NCBI GenBank assembly: GCA_021234155.1
Contig: JAJEKV010000027.1
Location: forward strand, 8,044,873-8,108,872
Length of the DNA: 64,000 nucleotides
DNA from: Isoetes taiwanensis
Lineage: Eukaryota; Streptophyta; Lycopodiopsida; Isoetales; Isoetaceae
Direction: 5' to 3'
In this document: piece by piece, positions 48,719-64,000 of the stretch
Numbering within the stretch: the first letter of the stretch is position 1
Layout of the letters: each line of letters opens with the position of its first letter
Made by a program: the position numbers and the translations under genes
Notes under the pieces: model-generated
Databases searched by the model: none
The model's input: only the letters and a program-made list of their open reading frames with translations
Told to the model about the DNA's origin: nothing

Positions 48719-49586
48719 ATAGGACACATTCCTCTAGATGGCGATTGCAGACAACTTGAGTCCTATTACTTGCTTGAAGTCGGATGCGTATGTGTATATT
48801 TTAAAGACAATCCTTTCTCTGAATTTCAGGGTTTCTAAAACCCTAAGTTGTGCAGTTTCATGCCATTCTTTCTGCCCATTCATGAGACTTAGGTTTATGA
48901 TGCAATATTCTTGAGGATCTATTGGCAGGTGTATGCGTTAGATAATTTCATATTTATTTTGAAATATTTGGAAAGGCTTGGAGAAACCTCGAAGAAGTCG
49001 ATCCCAGAATAGCAAGAACATATTTATCTGGAAAGCCCCGCAAGGCTTTGAGTCACTCTGATTTGCAGCAGAATTGATCTGGGCAAGAGGAGTGTAACCT
49101 CTTGACCTCTTGAGAAGGTGACAGCTATCAGAGCCTATTGAAAACAGCTTTTTTCTATAAGACTACCGCAACTTCAGAGGAAGAAGTTGCACTTTTGGCA
49201 TTATGGTGAGTTCATGAGTGCCTTAGCTGATAAAAAGACCTCAATGTCTCTTCTATTTGATCCTTTAGGCCTTTGCTAGTTGCACGTACTGTCCTAAATC
49301 TTCTTCTTGTAGTGCTATGAATTCTTTTCTGTCCTGTGTTGGACATTCTGTTCTGTGAACATCCTCTGTTTGCAATGCCAGTTATGACCTGTATGTGAAA
49401 ATCTTCCTCTCTTTGAGTTGCTATAGATGGTCAGAGGAATATAAAAGCAACTGCACGCAACCTTGCCTTTGAGTTGCCACAGATGGTCAGGGGACGCAAA
49501 AGCAATTGCAGGCAACCTTGCCGTAAGAGATAAAGTGTCTACAATTTCTACTGGATGCGCCCAATTTGCTTTTAACAAGATTGCGT
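48719..49586. other. Left flank of the ParB-methyltransferase element, with a 56-bp tandem duplication
   Basis: 49411-49466 and 49467-49521 are two diverged units starting CTTTGAGTTGCYAYAGATGG and ending GCAACCTTGC. No gene is recognised; a GTGAGT donor-like site at 49204 follows a short frame (TTATSEEEVALLALW) of unknown origin. Confidence 0.5.
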
Positions 49587-49640
49587 ATTAAACGGGAGCA
49601 AATCATCGAAACGAGAGCAAAAGGAATATTCCTTTAAGAT
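49587..49640 (+). repeat. Left terminal inverted repeat
   Basis: ATTAAACGGGAG at 49587-49598, then AAACGAGAG, then the 16-bp palindrome AAAGGAATATTCCTTT at 49620-49635. The first and last blocks match the right end in inverted order. A poly-T and poly-A stretch follows inward. Confidence 0.6.
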
Positions 49641-49960
49641 TCCCTTTTTTTTTTTTACAAAAAAGGGGTAAAACGAGGAAAAAAAAGGGTTGCATGAAAT
49701 TCTATTTTGATCCCCCTCCCCCCCTCCCCCAAATGACTAGTTTTTTTGTGCAACAAAAGAATTGACTTTTTTAAAGTGACACTTTTCTTAGCAAATAGAA
49801 TGTTCTTGAAGTATGTTTTTAGAGAGAAACTCTAATTTCAGAGGATAAAATATTTAACAAAAAATTGAAGTAAAGTCTGTAACTGAAACTGTAGTATTCT
49901 TAAAATTTGAAGATAAAATCTTCATATTCACATGCAAAATTTACAGTCTTTTTCTAAGAC

Positions 49961-52186
49961 TCAGTTATGTACAAAAGTGTGAGGAGTGATGAAGGAGGGA
50001 TCCAGGACGTCATCATATTCATTTATGCCATCCTCATCACCTTCACTTTTTTCACTGTCACTCGAGGAAGTGCTTGAGTTGTCTTTCTCATCACTATCAA
50101 CAGATGGTGAAGCATTGCCACCACCACTCCCTTCTTCATCCTCTTCCTCATAACTACAAGCCTTTTTAAGCAAATTGATAGTTCTCTGGCACAGACGATT
50201 GTCAGGTTTCAATTTGAAATCATAGCACAATATAGTCACATCACTTTAAGTTCAGCTCATCCCTACAACCCACTTTCTTGGACTTCCTCCCTTTTCTTTG
50301 ACTTCTCATTTCTAACTCTACCTACCTTCAAAAGCATTTTCTGAACGTGTCGCAAGCCAGTGAATCGTGAGTTTAGTTACTAAGCCTTCCTCCTTGACTG
50401 TATCAAGAACTTTTGCTACCGAAAAAGGTTGACCTTTGTCATCTTCCTCAGTTGGAAGAGCAATCAACATACCTTTGACAATTTTTGTGATATTGCCTTG
50501 AGGCTCATTCCTACGTCTTGGTCCGAGGTACATGCTCGGTCCTCGTCTTCCTCTGGTGCTAATGTAGCATTGCTTGGACCTGCCTGGTTCTGGGGTTGAT
50601 GGAAGGTATCAGGCCATTGAAACGGTTCTTGCAACTGTCTTAGAGCTAGGTTGTCCAAGACATCTTTCTGTTCAAGAAAGAAATTTCTCCACCACATCTG
50701 ATCTTCTTCTGAGAAGTACTTAAAGCCTGAGGTAATGCCATTTCCAATGGCTTTTAAGGATGTCAATAAGGTACTTTTCTTCTGCACGTTAGGAGAAATA
50801 TGCTTTTCTTCTGTCAATGACTCCTTAGGATTTTTGAGAGGAAGTTGCTCAGCACGTTCTATGAAGCAATGGTCTGGAACAAATTTAAGGAAGTGCAATC
50901 CCTCTGGTGGACTCCAATCCTTAATTGTGGTGTACTTCTTCCCCGGTAAGAAGCTTTGTCCATCCTTCAAGTAGAACTTGATGTGATGTTGAAAGGTAAG
51001 ATCATTCAACTTGTTCACAACTAGTTCTCTATCTGAACGTTGAGGAAAAACAAACTCTCTAAAGTCAGCAGTCTCTTTAAGAAGCTCGACCACTGGAATA
51101 GGAGTGTAAGAATCTTCAATGATTCGAACTAAAGTAGGAAGACAAAAAGCTTCTTCCTTCTAAGGCGCACAGAAAATCTGCTGAACATCTGGTCAATCTG
51201 ATCATGTGTGTGCCCTACAAGTAAAAATCCGAGCTTTACTTTTCTGAAGATCCTTAGCCCCACTAGCATAGCACAATAAGCAAAGAGTGTTTGATTCTTG
51301 TTCTCTCTTGTAGTGTTGTCAAGTTGCAGGTAGAGCACTGGTGGTAGTTGCTCTTGCTCGGACAGGACCTTGTTAAGAATTGTAATTGTCAGGTTCGGGT
51401 CACCATGAAGTTTGGATACGTCAAAAATACTTTGCACTTTAGACTTCCTTTGAAGACCATGGCTCCTACAAGGTGGACTTTAACAAAACATTCCTCTGGC
51501 ACATCTTTGGAATATTTAGGAAATGGGGTAGAGTTGTCTTTTTTCTATCCATTCCATCAATTACAATAGACATATATTGCAGTGGACATTCGAGAGCTTT
51601 TTTTCTGTGTTTTGGCGAGCTTTCTTCTCTTTGCTGCTTGTTGTTCATGATGTCTGGCAAGATTCTGTTGCACGATATCTGTAAAAGAAATCAGGTTAAA
51701 ATATTTTCTTTAAAACAAGTGAGAGATTGGAGGACTTGAGCTTACTTCTTTCGACCTCTGTCTTTGCAGTTTCTCGTTGACTTTTTAATTCTGCACACCT
51801 TGAGCAAACAAACACTCTATGTCTCCTTGGAATTTTCACAAGGCCAAATTCACTTTTTCATAGTCTAGTGAAGTGTGAGTAAGGGATGTGCTGAAACTGA
51901 ATGCAAGTCTCTTTGTATTCTTTGAAGACCTCTTTTTTGTAATATTGTCTGTCAAATGATACATGTTGCTATTAGGCAACTTCTCACATGTCTCTCTAAA
52001 ATATTTCCCCATCCATGTCACAGCAGCCAGGGCATGCATGGTTACAACTCTTCTTGGACCACAGTGATTATCAATTGCTGGGTTTTTATCCAGTCTTTTG
52101 TGTATTCGAGACATTCTTGTGGACCCTAAATGGTGGACAACCATAAAGCTATTTTTGACAGACTTGTTCATGAAGCGGTTCGTCAT
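49961..52186 (-). pseudogene. Transposase-like protein (DUF7869-type), decayed
   Basis: From 52186 leftward the reading gives a helical N-terminal part (RRVVTMHALAAVTWMGKYF) and a KKEVFKEYKE segment. Next comes a likely zinc site (RRHRVFVCSRCAELKSQR), then an intron (51745-51679, GT-AG). After it come IVIDGMDRKKTTLPHF, VLYLQLDNTTRENKNQTLF and VGHTHDQIDQMFSRFSVRL. The D in IDGMD, the D in QLDN and the D/Q of HTHDQIDQ are candidate RNase-H-like catalytic residues (inference). A C-terminal segment (GMLIALPTEEDDKGQPFSVA) resembles a BAH/chromo-like fold, and the end is acidic and serine-rich. The order matches proteins I recall annotated DUF7869 in algae and corals; a search is needed. At least three frameshifts break it. 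Confidence 0.6.
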
Positions 52187-52299
52187 CGTAACAACTGCAA
52201 ATTAGTGTAGAGATTTGAGAAACTTTCTCTAATGCAGAACTTTTCTTATTCCCAAATACGGTACAAGTAGAAGTTCCTGTAATGATTAAGTGAAAGGAA

Positions 52300-52902
52300 A
52301 ACTAAAAGCTATTCTGGAATACACTGGAGTAGGACACTAAGGCTAAACGTATTCCATTTCACATAGAATACGAGCAAGACGAAAGGGTTACCTGTAAAAG
52401 GAAATTTTGGCGCCCTCACTTCCGTATTCCAGTCTCTGAGTTCTAGTCGCCAACGCCAGCGCCTTCAATATTAAATTCAGAGACTGTATTCTGATTTGCA
52501 TAGAGAAGACATGGACAAATGAGTGTAAAAAGTACAATGTACTTTCATTTTCAAATCTGTTGCTTATTCCAGAATAGAATTTGGTTGATCAAAGGAGCCA
52601 AAGTGTATTCCGGAATACACTTTGGCTCCTGTGGGTAAGCCAAAGTGTATTCCGGAATACACATTCGGTGTTGTTTTGTAGGCAAGTTGTAATTTTGAGA
52701 AAAATTTGCCTGCTTTTTGCTCTAAGGAGCATGTTTTTCAACACATTTTAGACGACAAAAAACCCCTAAATGCATTGAAATTGTTGTGGAAAAGTCTTAA
52801 ATTTGTTCTATTTAAGAACCAAAATTCTGTTTTTTTATTCCAGAATAAGTTTTTATCTTCGTTTCGTCTTCTAATTTTGGTTTTAACAAAAACATTTTAC
52901 AG
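52300..52902. promoter_or_regulatory. Divergent intergenic and leader region rich in GTATTCCGGAATAC palindromes
   Basis: This lies between the leftward and rightward genes. It holds TATTCTGGAATAC (52310-52322), half sites at 52349 and 52423, TATTCCAGAATA (52565-52576), a 38-bp perfect palindrome (52593-52630), an 18-bp copy (52645-52662) and TTATTCCAGAATAA (52835-52848). The last part (to 52902) is probably an intron, because an acceptor ATTTTACAG precedes the first coding exon at 52903. Placement between divergent genes suggests control of both. Confidence 0.6.
52593..52630. promoter_or_regulatory. 38-bp perfect palindrome
   Basis: The left arm AGGAGCCAAAGTGTATTCC is followed directly by its exact complement in reverse. 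It is the longest member of the GTATTCCGGAATAC family, and a second 18-bp copy lies 14 bp downstream. A perfect palindrome of this length in a decayed element indicates recent origin, gene conversion or constraint. Confidence 0.9.
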
Positions 52903-54263
52903 GCAAGAAGGTAGCAATAAAACTTCACGCAAGACGATAAAGCTGAAATCAAAACCACACCCACAGGCTAGGGTTCAGGACACAGATGAACCTGCTGTGT
53001 ACGAAAATTTTCAGACACAGTGGTTCATAACAAGGGGAACTGGAAGAAAGTACAGCACACTCACTTTCCTCCATGTCTGCGGAAGTCCGGGAGGCAAGCG
53101 CTACGATGACTCGGAGTTTAAGTGCATGGGAGTCATCGAAGAAATTTCAGAAATCGCGGGTCAGTCTGGACAACAGGGAAGGCTATCTTTTAAGACCTCC
53201 CAAGGATTTATAGTTGTGGACCAGACCTATTTCAGACTTGGTAGAGTGGCACCTCCAGCTTTGCACAAGTACATGACACATTACATAAATAAGCTGAGGT
53301 TGTCGGAAATTATAAAAAGAGTTCAATCCACTCAAAGCGAGGATTTTGCTTGCAGTGAATCTGAAGATGAAATAGTGGAGGAGGAGAGGTAAGAAGATGC
53401 CTCCAGTCAGGAAGAACGGGACGAAAGTCCCAGTACATCAGAAGAACATCAGAGGATGAGCCAGTTACAAGGCACTGTTGCAGCTAAGGAACCTAAAAAA
53501 CGCAAAGTGCAAGAGATTATGGTGCAGGAAATTCCAGAAGAACATCCAAAGAAAAAGAAGGGAAAGGGTAAGGCACCAGGGGTGGCCATCAAGGAAAAGA
53601 AGGTGGACAAGACCTCAGAGCGGATGGAAGAAATAAATTTGCACAAATATGTGCAAGGAGTAATTTATTTGCCAGTAACTTCCATGAGGTTGCCACCAAA
53701 AAATGAAGCTGGTGACCGCCCTCTTTAGGTTCGGAAGATTTACGCTGACCACTTAAGGAACCTAAAGACAGAATCAGGAGCAACTCCAATGCCCACGTTG
53801 CACCGACTGTCGTTATCGTGGACAGATCCCAGTGCATGGACCCCAAGGACTACGACAGAGAAAATGCAGACACTTACATACATTATGTTCTAGGTGGAAC
53901 CACAGTTTTAAAGCAAGGAGGCAGTTGTACAAGGAGAAACATAACCCGAGATATCTCTCTGTCCTCTGTGCTATTTACTGTGGCCTGACAGACGAAGAAG
54001 CGAAGATCGTTGCCAACACACACAATGCTGACAACGAGTATAAACTTAAAATGAGCTTCGTCGACAAGATCAGGTTTATGCATAGGGAGTTTGTAATATT
54101 TAAAGAAAAATATGGAGAAGATCTAAAAAAACCAGCAAACTCTTTAGAGCTGAAGGAAGCGTGTGCTGTCGAGTGTTGTCTCAAGTACGACGAGGCTAAC
54201 AAACGACAGTCTCTGATAGCACACGACAACTGGTTTCAACTAGCCTTCAGAGACGGCAGAGTA

Positions 54264-54296
54264 AGTATTTTTTGTATTCCAGAATAACCGTACAGT
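54264..54296. promoter_or_regulatory. Palindrome site in intron 54261-54327
   Basis: GTATTCCAGAATA at 54274-54286 in the 67-bp intron. It is one base from the consensus centre (CA for CG). Confidence 0.6.
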
Positions 54297-54663
54297 CCTC
54301 CCACTAACCACGTTTATATCTGTGCAGATTTGGGACCTATAAAATGAAATTTTTACCATGTTCGAGCGTGGAGAATTGAAAAGCAACGGAAAGGTCTCCG
54401 AAAAGAAAAAGGCTCCGACGTTCCGAAGAAAGAGATGACAATAACCGTCTGGAGAGAAATGCAGGGCTTCACAGACATGGACTTACTCGAAAGGCTACTG
54501 CAGAAGGTTGTGGACAAAGAATTTACTCTAGAAGAAATGTCCAAGTTGCTGCACAAGTAAGACAGAACGCCATTTGCTTTTCTTCTCTGCAATTATAACA
54601 GGACGTCATATTTATAAAATTAAGAAAATGCTTCGTGGCACGTTTTATTACCAATCCACAAAC

Positions 54664-54840
54664 GTATTTCGGAATATGCCTCTTCCTCTGTTTGCGGCTA
54701 GTTTGTTTTCCGAAGTATACATTTCTCTAAGCTGAAGCTAAAGTGTATTCTGGAATACACTTTAGCTGCTAAAAAAGCAAAACGTATTCCGGAATACACT
54801 AGTGCCTAGTCTAAAAATGATCCCGTATTCCGGAATAGGA
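54664..54840. promoter_or_regulatory. Cluster of four palindrome sites in intron 54557-54963
   Basis: GTATTTCGGAATAT (54664-54677); a 32-bp near-perfect palindrome (54736-54767) whose only defect is TG in place of the central CG, as CpG deamination would give; GTATTCCGGAATAC (54784-54797); and GTATTCCGGAATAG (54825-54838). The exons on either side contain none. Confidence 0.75.
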
Positions 54841-55607
54841 TTGTGCTTTGACGTGTAGGCAACAGTTGCCTCTGTTTACCACTTGTAGTGTTCTAAAGTG
54901 TTTCCTTCTTATTGATGCCTTCTAGTTAGTTGTCTTTCTTCTGATGTTGTAGTTATTTTTCAGCCAAAAAAACGTCATCACATGTCAAACATGTTTGATG
55001 GAACAATTGAATGTTGACAGCTGGGAAAGATGTAAAGAACTCTATCCTATCGCAACCTCGGATGAAAGGATCATCCAATATGCACCAAAATTTGAAGGCT
55101 GGGTATGTTGAATTATTTTCTACGTTTTCATTTTTCTTGTTACAGAGACGTTCTTTCTTGCAGAGCAAAAAGAAAAACAAGGACCTGCCGGAGGGCTTCA
55201 TGCACTTGGTCAGGACAATACGGGAGGAGAGAACATTAGCGAACAGGCGTGTTTTGGATAATGAGCCCTCCGATTACGAACGTTTTACCATGTTCGATCA
55301 AAACAACCTGTTTTGTATAGTACACGGTGACTGCACGAAATTGTTCGATCAAGCCCCAAGATTTCACCTTAGCAATAGCTGACCTGCCATATGGCTTCAA
55401 GCTTAAGGACAACCGCTACGATGACCAGCATTTAAAAACTCTGAGTTTAATGCTTTCGTCGACGGCATTAAGAAAATTACCACGACGAAACATTGGAGGC
55501 TAGTTGTTTTTCACTCAAGCATGCAATCCGGACTTGTGGAAGCCACCTTCAAGAATCACTTTGGTTACCAGTGCAAGCTGGATATGAAAACCTGGTCTGG
55601 TAAGTAC

Positions 55608-55714
55608 TTATTCGGGAATACAAATGTCTCTTTGTTTTCTTTATGTACTTTTTCTTTTAGTTAAATATGCTAGCATTTTCACATTCTTGTTAGGAGTTTC
55701 TATTCCGAAATACG
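55608..55714. promoter_or_regulatory. Two degenerate palindrome sites in intron 55600-55762
   Basis: TATTCGGGAATAC (55609-55621) and TATTCCGAAATACG (55701-55714) each differ from the consensus by one or two bases. Confidence 0.5.
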
Positions 55715-56726
55715 TTTCTTTCGGTACAAGTTAACTCGTATGTTATTTTTCTTGTTCCTTAGGTACAAAACAAATATTAATTACCATGGTGGACGACCGA
55801 GACTGCTAAGTAAGGTGAATATCTCCATGTCGCTTACTGGAGTTTCGACAGAAAGCGTATAATGGAACATTTTAACACAGCAGCGTGCCAGAATTTCTCG
55901 AACGTATTGGAGTTCCCAGTGGTATTGCAGAAGCTGCAGGACCCTAGTGCACAAGGGAGAATAGTGAATCATTACCAGAAGCCACAAAAGTTGATTAACC
56001 ATCTTCTAGACATGTTCTCACGACCATGAGATTGGGTGCTCGATGCATTTTCTGGCTTGCTTGTGCAATTAGGAAGGGCCGTAATTGTGTAGCCATTGAC
56101 ATTGATAAGGAGGCTGTGAACTTCATCAAGATGAGACTGTCTGCCTTACCAACTCTACCAGACGAGAATCAAGAGTTGGGCGCCAAGTCTTCATCTGATT
56201 TTGCCAAGATGACATCTTCGGAGATACAACCTCCATTTACAAGCTCCTTGGATGACGAAGCTACTTTTGTAGAGTTGAAAGAAGTAGCTCTAGCTACAAT
56301 ACCGGAAGCAACTAGCAACACAGAGAAGCCTAAGTCACCGGAAAAAGATGAAACGACAGAATCTGACAAAGCTGAGACGAGCATGAAAAATGAAGAAGAC
56401 TATGCTTTAAATCTGTGACTTGTCTTATGCTATAGTTATTGATTGACATTGATTATTGCCATTATTGATGTAACACAAAAACTGTAAAGAAATTATTATT
56501 ATTATTTCTACTAAATTTGTGTTATTTCTACATCCACCTTCATAAAATTGCGTACTCATGTCTGAATTTTGCCATTTTTATGTGATTCACTCTACAAAAC
56601 CAAGGTCGTGTCCAAAAGGGACCCCAAAAATAGGCAAAAAAAAAAAATTGATACTCCTGAAATTTTAAACTTCTATTAAAAAAGTCCAATTTTGAAAGAG
56701 ACGTGCTTTTTTTAAAGGAATCTTTG

Positions 56727-56756
56727 AAACGGGAGTGCTGCAACACTCCCGTTTAA
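56727..56756 (-). repeat. Right terminal inverted repeat with hairpin
   Basis: AAACGGGAGTG (56727-56737) and CACTCCCGTTT (56744-56754) form an 11-bp perfect stem with a 6-base loop. The outer arm continues to AAT and is the inverse of the left end ATTAAACGGGAG. AAAGGAATC inward matches the inner block of the left end. Confidence 0.65.
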
Positions 56757-57011
56757 TTTGCAACCTTGTTTTTTGCCAAGGAGTCATCGTTGCATAATGA
56801 TCCTTCTTATTGCAGGTACATATCTCGCAACACAAACTATATGCCATACTACATAGGCCACATTGCAGGTAGGCATGTATCCGAGGTACAATATCAGTAA
56901 AAGGACTTTGATTCCAATATGCATCCCATGGACTTTAATTCCAGTATGTACCAATATGATGTGAAATGGACAGAGAAAGCAACTAATGATTCATCATAGC
57001 TTTTTTTTTTT
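56757..57011. other. Spacer between two insertions
   Basis: It includes two similar words (GGACTTTGATTCCAATATG and GGACTTTAATTCCAGTATG) near 56903 and 56930. It ends with AATGATTCATCATAGC and a T run, which is the left side of the site also seen intact at 48498. Confidence 0.5.
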
Positions 57012-61275: not shown

Positions 61276-63119
61276 ATATAGTGTGCTAATTTCGTTTTGG
61301 GTTGGGAAGGGTATTCTGGCAGTGGTTAGGACTATGATTTCAGTATCATATTGTATGAAAAATGGTATAATTTGCCATGTGGGAGCAGCTTAAATGGTTT
61401 TTGCTATTTTGGGTGATTTGCAACTCCCTTCTTTCATGGATGTTTTTGCATTTTTTGTAATGGTTGAAAGGAAGCGCTCACACTATCTCCCCCCGATTGG
61501 GGTTATTAAAAAAAAAAAAATGGAAACCCTTCCAAATTTCCCTAAAATCCGGAAGGGTTTCCACAATAATATTTTTTTTTTTTGGGGTTTCAAGATAGCC
61601 ATCGGTAATTAATGCTTCGAATTAATCACGAAAATTCTGCCCTGATCATGCCCGCGCTTTGATCATGCCCGCGCTTTGTCTTGTTCTGCTGCGAAGCTTC
61701 AGCTATGGCGGATTTGGTGCTTCAGCTATGGCCGGATTTGCGCGGATTTGGGCAGTAAAAGGAAAGCGAAAATGATGGATTCTTGTGCGTAATGGGCGTT
61801 TCTTACGTATTTCAAAGCGGCCTCGTTCTTGGGTTCTTCAAATCGAAACGACCTCTCTTCTTCTCCTTCTTCCCAAGCCAAAACCTTAGATTCTACTTTG
61901 CATCTCTTAAGCGCACATTCTTTCGGCAGATCTTTCTTCTTTATCAAGAAAAATGGCTTCCACGGGAGGTTTTTTTTTTCGTCTGCTTTGTTTCGGTTTT
62001 TAGCAGGCGGCGGCGGAGTTGTGGATTTGGGGAACTCGCCATTTTGGAACAACGGTATGAATCATGCCATAGTTACATTTCGCGGATATATGGCATCAAA
62101 AGAATCCGCCTAAAGAATCCATCGGAAATGCTTCAACAAATGAGTTGAATCGCATGAAATGATTTCTGAGCTGGATTTGACATAGGGACACACAATCTTC
62201 ATGAGATCACCCTGTTTTGGGTTTCAATTGTTCAATCACGGTTCAATCACGGTTCTTCCCCTAATTCTGAGACCCGATGGACATTTTCTTCTAATTCCAG
62301 CTGATTATGAGGCAAGAAACTAATTCCTTCACCCCACTAGCACGAAATTGTCCCCCGAATCTAGAGGATCAAAAAGCCCTATGCAATTTGGCCAATTAAT
62401 GCTGCAATTAGATCAGCCCGGATTTCTGCCCCAAATAAGGAGCCCGATCTTCTTTTGACCCCAAATCCAATCGATTCCAAGTCCGAATTCTAATTAACTT
62501 TCACCATTGGCTCAAGAGGCCATTCCGAACCTGAATCTGCAAAAAGCCCCATCCGACGATTTGCTCATTTTGGTTTCCATTTTTTTTAAAAAAAAGCAGT
62601 CCCGCCATAGTCAAGAACCGTAACAGACTTGTCCCTTCAAATTGGACATCCAAATGCTCTCTATTTTTCAATTAACTTTGCTAGAATGATCTTATGGCTG
62701 ATCCCAACATTTTGATCCGAGGAAAGCCCCATGGATTGCCCACGATTTCTCCAGTAATCATAGGCTTTCCACTGCTGCAAAGACCGCGAGGCACCCGAAC
62801 TAATGTACCCTCTAAAGGCCCAAGATTAGACATCAAAATCGCTGAATCATGGTCGGATCTATGCTCCTCCCATCTTACTCCAAAGCCCCATAGATTAACA
62901 GCAATATTGGGCTTATTTGGCAAGAAATCGGGTGGGATTTGTTAAGGGGGCAATTTTGTTAAAGGTTTACTTATTTTGTAACCTTGGAAAACAATTCAAT
63001 GTGCAATCCTAGCTTGATATGTGCACAATGAAATAACTCACCTTCACTTTCGATGGACGTGCACCTTAATGTCGGCGTCCGGGAAATCGAAAAGTGTGAG
63101 CCATAAAGGCTCGCGTGTG
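61276..63119. other. Intergenic or possible gene start, nothing firmly recognised
   Basis: A foldback of the GGAAACCCTTCC family lies at 61521-61562. Tandem words GATCATGCCCGCGCTTT (61643-61676) and CTTCAGCTATGGC (61697 and 61722) follow. At 61952 an ATG reads MASTGG before a possible donor, with an acceptor-like TTTTAGCAG at 61996-62004; this could be the first exon of a gene but has no recognisable product. Confidence 0.35.
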
Positions 63120-63139
63120 TGTTTAAAAAAAAAAAATTC

Positions 63140-63445
63140 CGTGGAAACCCTTCTTGTTTTCCACGGAAACCCCCTCGATTTTCAAATTGGAAACCCTTCC
63201 AATTTTCCATTAAAACCAGGAAGGGTTTCCATGGAAACCCTTCCTATTTTCCATGGAAACCCTTCCTATTTTCCGGGTTTTGGAAAATAGGAAGGGTTTC
63301 CATGGAAACCCTTCCCCGGTTTTAATGAAAGCCGGAAGGGTTTCCATGGAAACCCTTCCTATTTTCCATGGAAACCCTTCCTATTTTCCATGGAAAATAG
63401 GAAGGGTTTCCATGGAAAATAGGAGGAAGGGTTTCCATGGGAGCC
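63140..63445. repeat. Palindromic array of GGAAACCCTTCC units
   Basis: About a dozen copies of GGAAACCCTTCC or its complement GGAAGGGTTTCC alternate in orientation, often joined through CCATGG and spaced by TATTTTCC. Several adjacent pairs make perfect palindromes with 12-base arms around AT. Single-stranded DNA or RNA from here would fold strongly. No coding potential. Confidence 0.9.
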
Positions 63446-64000
63446 CAACCCAAATAGGGAGTACTTAGAACCATCGGAAAGGAAGGGTATTTTTAATTTT
63501 AGGGCCACGGATAAGATTGCACGCTAGTTTCTTTTTTTGGGCGAGGTGCAGAGGGATCCGGTTGCAAGAATCGGGGGTTGGGGGTTTTGTGCGGATTTGA
63601 GGTTAAGAATGCTAGAACGGACGAAGAAATCTAACATGCGGAGTTCTTGCTTTGCTAAATTAAAGCTCGATTGGATTCAGCGTGGGTCGTGAAGCAAATC
63701 GACAATTTTTTGGCGGGGCGAGCGGCAAAGCCCCCTTTTCCTTCTATTCTTTCCAAATCCAACCCCTCGGCTTCCTTACAGATGCAATGTGAAGAGGCGC
63801 TTTCTTGCTTTCTCAAGATCCACGATCGCGGCTTCTACACGTGGAGCGCCAGGCTATGGCATGTCCAAGCGGCCCTTTCTGGATAAAGTCACGGTGATTG
63901 CATAATATTTCTGCTAAAAGCTAACGCGGAAAGAGGAGCTTTGAAGTTATTAGAAGAGGATCCGCCTTCCATAGCCGCAGCTATGGCAGATTCTTTGAGC
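63446..64000. other. Window end, no gene recognised
   Basis: A 71-codon frame at 63671-63886 and an alternative frame (KRRFLAFSRSTIAASTRG) are not recognised. The word CAGCTATGG seen near 61700 recurs near 63980. Confidence 0.35.

What the first reader, a model, noticed from the sequence alone, without database searches (positions are those of the whole stretch)
52300..55714. About a dozen GTATTCCGGAATAC palindromes confined to introns and the intergenic region of the element
Seen: copies at 52310, 52565, 52601, 52645, 52835, 54274, 54664, 54741, 54784, 54825, 55609 and 55701, all outside exons; I noticed none elsewhere in the 64 kb. Known: ParB proteins bind palindromic parS sites, and the VANC anti-silencing proteins of VANDAL transposons bind short motifs spread through their own noncoding DNA. 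Inference: these are recognition sites of the element's own ParB-methyltransferase or transposase, giving self versus host discrimination.
Basis: partly seen in the sequence, partly recalled or inferred. Interest (0 to 1): 0.88.

Follow-up and report, generated by a model that had tools for sequence, protein, structure and literature searches.

The report
Phased palindrome arrays in a transposon
A large family of jumping genes in this 1.66-billion-base genome carries ordered rows of one DNA palindrome in its control region and introns, which look like docking sites for one of its own proteins and may help it recognise or protect itself.

Summary
The palindromes are real, far above chance and conserved in the family. 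Thirteen (<=3 mismatches to GTATTCCGGAATAC) lie in the 7.2-kb element at 49574-56770, none in the exon model; shuffles average 0.16. TATTCCNGAATA occurs 8468 times on the forward strand genome-wide, against 333 for the reversed control; close pairs 4508 against 1. The site is a dyad of 24 bp or more, AAAGTGTATTCYRGAATACACTTT. Spacing is about 42 bp (four helical turns): 50 of 62 close pairs in mostly motif-picked DNA, 12 of 13 in DNA picked by protein. In 8 two-gene copies, promoter and intron 3 sites recur in 8, intron 5 in 6, intron 2 in 5. Sites are better conserved (0.78-0.87) than the rest of the introns (0.46-0.67) in 5 of 5 copies aligned. The element encodes a DUF7869 protein and a PF01555 DNA methyltransferase under purifying selection. 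Best reading: phased docking sites for an element-encoded dimeric protein, a VANC-like self-recognition system. Which protein binds is unproven; the ParB-like domain was not confirmed. The central CpG decays to TG/CA, as methylated cytosine would.

The parts
49574..49598 (+). left terminal inverted repeat AACAAGATTGCGTATTAAACGGGAG; preceded by TTTT (49570-49573), the 4-bp target-site duplication
   Evidence: (inverted repeat I5); the same repeat is found in other copies
56746..56770 (-). right terminal inverted repeat, followed by TTTT
50318..52201 (-). DUF7869 (PF25273) transposase-like gene, in broken frames; lacks much of its N-terminal part relative to the 987-aa frame of L032
   Evidence: (PF25273, 1.6e-39)
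52246..52848 (.). divergent promoter / 5' leader with sites at 52246, 52309, 52564, 52605, 52647 and 52835; 52593-52630 is a perfect 38-bp palindrome
52905..54260 (+). N-terminal region plus ParB-like segment (frame broken in this copy; ParB identity unconfirmed)
54274..54287 (.). single palindrome in intron 2 (54261-54328), at the same place in 4 of 5 aligned copies (C21 differs)
54329..54558 (+). exon 3
54664..54838 (.). intron 3 array: 54664, 54745, 54784, 54825 (the last three 39 and 41 bp apart; an apparently decayed unit between the first two)
54965..55101 (+). exon 4
55165..55598 (+). methyltransferase N-terminal exon, with a DLPYG motif in relatives (motif named from recall)
55608..55713 (.). 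intron 5 sites 55608 and 55700
55764..56419 (+). methyltransferase C-terminal exon (PF01555 in relatives; frame broken here)

Best explanation
The palindromes are cis-acting binding sites for a symmetric (dimeric or oligomeric) DNA-binding protein encoded by the element itself. They form arrays phased at four helical turns in the divergent promoter and in introns, that is, in sequence free of coding constraint. Several dimers would sit on one face of the DNA and cooperate, so that only DNA with many sites (the element, including non-autonomous copies) is recognised and scattered host matches are ignored. The most likely binder is the conserved second protein, which carries a bacterial-type DNA methyltransferase domain. 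Binding would mark the element's noncoding DNA and keep its promoter open against host silencing, as VANC does for VANDAL. Shown: sites, phasing, conservation, noncoding placement, retention in two apparently non-autonomous copies, and selection on the protein. Inferred: binding, which protein binds, anti-silencing, and any self-methylation.
For: Genome-wide 8468 forward and 8376 reverse hits against 333 and 348 for the control (a CCGG-centred site counts on both strands); 4508 close pairs against 1. Dyad-symmetric 24-bp logo from 96 sites, 3 of them counted twice because two fetched regions overlap. Spacing 39-43 bp in 50 of 62 pairs <=50 bp apart and in 12 of 13 in the DUF7869-ascertained sample. 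Sites in coding matches: 0 of 133 and 0 of 32, with the N-terminal exon query out of frame in both; with the right frame 9 of 133 fell in matches, all in leader or intron read-through tails by inspection. Four of 5 loci found by protein, not by motif, carry sites; the fifth is a fragment. Motif identity exceeds the rest of the intron in 5 of 5 copies. dN/dS is 0.04-0.18 in 19 of 20 values (5 copies, 10 pairs, two gene halves; one undefined; 4 more diverged or partial copies were left out). L010 and L014 have both element ends and sites but no tblastn coding match at E<=1e-3.
Against: No binding, expression or methylation data. The ParB-like domain was not confirmed. No covariation between a protein clade and a site type was demonstrated: a short-centre site variant appears in some copies, mostly in C21, C30 and C17, which are diverged and lie in contigs of 325-345 kb where assembly error is possible. 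Array alignment can pair any repeat with any other, which inflates motif identity. Tandem or inverted duplication also produces regular spacing. The intron 2 and intron 5 sites are missing at <=2 mismatches from 3 and 2 of 8 copies. Beside the left end a palindrome, AAAGGAATATTCCTTT (49620-49635), holds the half-site GGAAT in the opposite arrangement and recurs in several copies, which favours the transposase rival somewhat.
Confidence: 0.5

Rival explanations
1. The DUF7869 transposase binds the palindromes, as internal or subterminal transposase sites or for autorepression of the divergent promoter.
For: Of the fetched regions with a site of <=2 mismatches, those I checked hold a DUF7869 match, a second-gene match or element ends. 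In the apparently non-autonomous L010 and L014 the sites lie about 220-1330 bp from the nearer end. The promoter is shared by both genes. A left-end palindrome, AAAGGAATATTCCTTT (49620-49635), with the inverted half-site recurs in several copies.
Against: In the full-length window copy the sites are about 1.1-3.3 kb from the nearer end, and about half lie in introns of the other gene, an odd place for transposase sites. The terminal repeats themselves carry no site at <=3 mismatches.
Confidence: 0.22
2. They are sites for a host transcription factor that drives both genes; the core TTCnnGAA resembles a heat-shock element (recalled).
For: Promoter position and palindromic form.
Against: The constraint extends over 24 bp or more, arrays recur inside introns, and the pairs are almost absent from the control.
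Confidence: 0.12
3. The palindromes act as structure: cruciforms in DNA or hairpins in intron RNA, affecting splicing, small RNAs or replication.
For: Long perfect palindromes (38 bp in the window; 34 bp in L032). Spacer arms covary symmetrically: 137 of 217 against a shuffle mean of 106.7, 0 of 5000 shuffles as high, for 31 spacers of 28 nt.
Against: The centre has no loop. The core sequence itself is conserved, not just pairing. The ~42-bp phase suggests duplex DNA. No folding energies were computed.
Confidence: 0.1
4. A neutral by-product: a palindrome spread by tandem and inverted duplication with no function.
For: Regular spacing, inverted symmetry of the spacers, variable copy number of the intron 3 array.
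Against: Spacers diverge (mean identity 0.45 in the middle 12 nt of 31 spacers of 28 nt) while sites and spacing persist across copies with synonymous differences of 0.37-0.74 per site.
Confidence: 0.06

Closest known systems
VANC / VANDAL21 and VANDAL6 anti-silencing systems of Arabidopsis (PMC5735166 and PMC10398659; passages seen)
   Same: A short motif at high density in noncoding DNA (upstream regions and introns) of one transposon family and rare elsewhere; copy number varies through repeat formation; motif variants within the family.
   Different: Here the motif is a palindrome phased at ~42 bp; the VANDAL motifs in the passages are 8-9 bp, not palindromic, and VANC21's are arrayed in one orientation. 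The genes differ: DUF7869 plus a bacterial-type methyltransferase. No anti-silencing effect has been shown here.
ParB-parS (recalled)
   Same: A palindrome bound by a dimer in clusters; a weak ParB-like segment in the second protein.
   Different: Different sequence, ~42-bp phasing in a eukaryotic-type transposon with introns, ParB domain not confirmed; a ParA partner was not searched for.
Sola2-type DNA transposons (PMC3627910, passages seen)
   Same: 4-bp, mostly AT-rich target-site duplication, short terminal repeats; some carry an extra protein.
   Different: Relationship of the Sola2 transposase to DUF7869 not tested; no palindrome arrays in the passages seen.
Beta-class DNA adenine methyltransferases (M.MboIIA, M.RsrI, CcrM; class name recalled)
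   Same: The C-terminal part aligns (composite query); PF01555 6.5e-18 in L035.
   Different: Sits in a spliced transposon gene downstream of unknown domains; base specificity unknown.

Membership tests
VANDAL/VANC | motif enriched in the element's own noncoding DNA and rare elsewhere | tested here: met
VANDAL/VANC | MULE element with MuDR-type transposase and ~9-bp duplication (recalled) | tested here: not met
   4-bp duplications TTTT, ATAC, TTTA and AATG; the only Pfam match at E<=1 in the intact transposase-like protein is DUF7869
VANDAL/VANC | element protein binds the motif and removes DNA methylation | not testable with these tools
   no binding or methylation data
ParB-parS | ParB N-terminal (CTPase/nuclease-like) domain | tested here: inconclusive
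   DUF6551 E 0.061, 0.011 (composite), 0.11; phrog_723 E 0.22; nothing
ParB-parS | parS sequence and spreading | not tested
   parS recalled only
Sola2 | 4-bp AT-rich target-site duplication with short terminal repeats | tested here: met
   feature seen in passages of PMC3627910; ATAC and AATG each hold one non-AT base
Sola2 | Sola2 transposase homology | not tested
N6_N4 DNA methyltransferase | PF01555 match | tested here: met
   in relatives, the window copy being broken

The most novel reading that the evidence does not exclude
A nuclear DNA transposon family carries a bacterial-type epigenetic self-marking system. A ParB-like and methyltransferase protein loads cooperatively on helically phased palindromes in the element's promoter and introns and deposits a non-host mark (adenine or N4-cytosine methylation) or blocks CpG methylation there, so that the family, including its non-autonomous members, escapes host silencing as a self class.
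Probability: 0.2. Interest if true: 0.92.

Novelty: new variant of a known kind. Interest (0 to 1): 0.72.

Why it matters
If right, this is a second, unrelated solution to the problem VANC solves: how a transposon marks only itself with a short code. It would use helically phased palindromes and a bacterial-type methyltransferase instead of tandem short motifs. It makes a testable case for whether adenine or N4 methylation has a role in a large eukaryotic genome, and thousands of sites and copies allow natural-variation tests.

Tried and rejected
Rejected: chance or base composition; equal genome-wide frequency; a feature of this one copy only.

Tried without result. Protein homologs of the joined ParB-methyltransferase query: 5006 candidates, none at E <= 0.001. 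Solved structures for the ParB-like part: one search gave 10 weak matches, nine to a sodium/potassium pump subunit and one to a ribosomal protein, taken as chance; the profile search gave none. Phage records with the ParB-like part: no match. One phage methyltransferase was compared with it: no alignment, but Pfam shows no ParB domain in that phage protein, so this says little. Two single-sequence structure models were unusable (mean pLDDT 59 and 42), so no fold search was run. The 24-bp site in viral contigs: 0. The methyltransferase C-terminus in viral contigs: one locus at 36%.

Considered and not claimed: covariation of site type with protein clade. Half-site gaps of 0-1 instead of 2 occur mainly in C21, C30 and C17, with one each in C4_70000 and C1_323000, and in L035, a copy in a 21-Mb contig with long open frames. 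Gap-3 hits are mostly a sequence in the DUF7869 gene, taken as chance. A short-centre pattern gives 353 forward and 357 reverse against 24 and 22 genome-wide. Short-gap and 2-bp-gap sites coexist in one element, so decay or assembly error is not excluded.

Method limits: the N-terminal exon query was out of frame. With the right frame, 9 of 133 sites fell in coding matches; by inspection these are read-through tails of stop-to-stop queries over leader, intron 2 or intron 5. In the L032, L035 and L036 open frames, the sites lie outside the N-terminal frame of the second gene.
Full report
WHAT IS THERE. The finding lies in a 7197-bp DNA transposon at 49574-56770. It has a 25-nt terminal inverted repeat and a 4-bp duplication: TTTT here, ATAC in L014, TTTA in L010 and AATG in L036. 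The window sits in a 1.66-Gb assembly. The tools give no species name; that it is a plant is my impression, not tested. The element has two divergent genes. The minus-strand gene matches DUF7869 (PF25273, 1.6e-39); a relative, L032, has a 987-aa open frame with the domain at 4.4e-51. The plus-strand gene has a conserved N-terminal region of unknown type, a segment with weak ParB-like signal, and a C-terminal DNA methyltransferase: PF01555 at 3.3e-10 in L012 and 6.5e-18 in L035. A composite query from relatives has M.MboIIA, M.RsrI and CcrM as nearest solved structures. Both genes are broken in the window copy.

IS THE OBSERVATION TRUE. Yes. One search lists 17 matches with up to 3 mismatches in 64 kb, against 1.85 expected. 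Thirteen of the 17 lie in the element, and all 10 of the better ones (<=2 mismatches) do. Shuffling the element 500 times gives means of 0.01 (<=2) and 0.16 (<=3), with maxima of 1 and 2. No site lies in the exon model.

THE SITE IS LARGER AND ORDERED. A logo from 96 sites in the window and 12 fetched regions (3 counted twice through an overlap) shows a symmetric 24-bp site, AAAGTGTATTCYRGAATACACTTT. Long perfect palindromes reach 38 bp in the window and 34 bp in L032. In 15 non-redundant segments with 133 sites (<=2 mismatches; the window element and 14 stretches fetched mostly around motif hits), 62 pairs lie within 50 bp and 50 of these are 39-43 bp apart, with echoes near 83-85 and 125-127 bp. 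Pairs 5-35 bp apart (end to start) number 4508 in the genome, against 1 for the reversed control. A 42-bp step is four turns of DNA, so neighbouring sites face the same side. The spacers differ (mean identity 0.45 in the middle 12 nt of 31 spacers) but are themselves symmetric beyond the site: for 31 spacers of 28 nt, 137 of 217 arm positions pair, against a shuffle mean of 106.7, and 0 of 5000 shuffles reach that value. For 23 spacers of 27 nt, 21 of 5000 do; for 4 of 29 nt, 423 of 5000. This fits inverted duplication or strand switching as the way arrays grow, or a weaker second dyad half-way between sites.

IT IS A FAMILY TRAIT. Twelve regions chosen because they held motif hits all contain blastn matches to the element, although in L010, L014 and L017 these are only ends and site regions with small remnants. 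Of two regions fetched later for hits that stood alone, L021 matches the element's end and L020 shows no long match. To avoid that bias I took 5 loci from the 150 scored hits of a DUF7869 search (7752 first-look candidates), chosen by rank or open-frame length. Four of 5 carry sites (8, 4, 8 and 12); the fifth, L034, holds only a DUF7869 fragment. The reversed control gives 0 in all five. In that sample 12 of 13 pairs within 50 bp are 39-42 bp apart. No site lies in a coding match: 0 of 133 and 0 of 32. In both calls the N-terminal exon query was out of frame; with the right frame 9 of 133 fell in matches, all in read-through tails over leader or intron by inspection.

LAYOUT. Eight copies retain both genes well enough to compare: the window, C1, C3, C21, C23 and C29 and L035 and L036. 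At <=2 mismatches the divergent promoter has sites in 8 of 8 and intron 3 in 8 of 8 (2 to 6 sites, mostly phased). Intron 5 has one or two in 6 of 8 (not C29 or C21), and intron 2 has one in 5 of 8 (not C21, L035 or L036).

SELECTION. Between the window and five copies, identity is 0.66-0.86 in exons, 0.46-0.67 in introns outside the sites and 0.78-0.87 in the sites; the sites beat the rest of the intron in 5 of 5. Two cautions: the sites were defined in the window, and alignment may pair any array unit with any other. The second gene is under purifying selection: over 10 pairs of five copies, dN/dS is 0.04-0.12 for the ParB-like half and 0.04-0.18 for the methyltransferase half, with synonymous differences of 0.37-0.74 per site. 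One of the 20 values could not be computed, codons with gaps or stops were dropped, and four more diverged or partial copies in the alignment were left out. L010 and L014 have both element ends but gave no coding match at E<=1e-3 (L010 keeps a DNA-level remnant near exon 4). They still carry 13 and 15 sites (<=3 mismatches) between their ends, so the sites are kept in cis where neither gene is detected.

CENTRE OF THE SITE. Of 111 sites with intact flanks, the central two bases are CG 48, CA 30, TG 25, other 8. In the protein-ascertained sample CG is 18 of 30, CA 4, TG 3, other 5. CA and TG are what 5-methylcytosine decay of CG yields, so the centre has probably been methylated by the host in silenced copies; a binder that tolerates YR at the centre is the alternative. 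CpG observed/expected is 0.59 in the window and 0.59 in the element.

A SITE VARIANT. Some copies carry half-sites 0-1 bp apart instead of 2 (gap 2 in 132, gap 1 in 17, gap 0 in 9, larger gaps in 6). In the ParB-to-methyltransferase stretch, five copies (window, C1, C23, C29, C3) have gap 2 at 35 of 35 counted sites, C21 at 2 of 8, C30 at 1 of 8, C17 at 0 of 1; C4 has none to count. Genome-wide, GTATTCGAATAC with a nearby TATTC occurs 353 times against 24. This recalls the motif subtypes within VANDAL21, but I do not claim co-evolution: types coexist in single elements, C21, C30 and C17 are diverged copies in contigs of 325-345 kb, and assembly error is possible, although L035 in a 21-Mb contig has some too.

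MECHANISM. The length, symmetry, phasing, noncoding placement and retention without detected coding sequence fit docking sites for a symmetric protein that binds cooperatively. The family restriction argues for an element-encoded protein. I favour the methyltransferase protein because it is the conserved second gene and arrays lie in its own introns. The DUF7869 protein is the main rival; a palindrome beside the left end, AAAGGAATATTCCTTT at 49620-49635, holds the half-site GGAAT in the opposite arrangement and recurs in several copies, which speaks somewhat for it. The biological effect is by analogy with VANC proteins, which bind motifs in noncoding regions of their own family and remove silencing marks (PMC5735166 and PMC10398659, passages seen). 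ParB identity, DNA binding, methylation and anti-silencing are not shown.

KNOWN OR NEW. VANC/VANDAL is the nearest working model but not the family: the transposase-like protein and duplication length differ. The 4-bp duplications fit Sola2-type elements as described in passages of PMC3627910, but transposase relationship was not tested. Seven literature searches (listings only beyond the three papers named) did not show this system: DUF7869 is in 0 papers of the library, and I saw no listing of phased palindromes with a transposon methyltransferase. Most subscription papers and all bioRxiv preprints are missing from that library.

Noticed in passing
window 63137-63446 (and 61517-61563): A different palindromic, inverted-tandem array with a ~22-bp unit around TTTCCATGGAAACCCTTCC.
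   Followed up: partly
window 49620-49635: Perfect palindrome AAAGGAATATTCCTTT just inside the left terminal repeat, with the half-site GGAAT in the opposite arrangement to the studied sites; near-identical in L014, L018, L032 and L033.
   Followed up: partly
window 50318-52201 against L032:749-3709: The window's DUF7869 gene lacks much of the N-terminal part present in the 987-aa frame of L032, and its frames are broken.
   Followed up: partly
L018:118, 4632, 8874 (the last is the same place as L019:374): Head-to-tail repeats, 4.5 and 4.2 kb apart, of the DUF7869 half with palindromes; at two of the three units the terminal repeat directly abuts a palindrome (TATTCTGGAATA then AACAAAG), as if one insertion hit a site and was then duplicated.
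   Followed up: no
copies C23 and C3 (L028, L011/L012): The ParB-like half and the methyltransferase half of the gene give different trees and different synonymous differences (0.72 against 0.44), suggesting recombination between element lineages.
   Followed up: no
L011/L012 (C3:15500-31900): A retroelement reading frame (copia-like, label recalled) lies inside this copy of the transposon, splitting the ParB-like exon.
   Followed up: no
window 49411-49522: Two copies of a 55-56-bp direct repeat about 50 bp outside the left end of the element.
   Followed up: no
whole genome: 7752 first-look DUF7869 candidates, of which 150 were scored; several lie in open frames of 500-987 aa, suggesting a large and recently active family.
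   Followed up: partly
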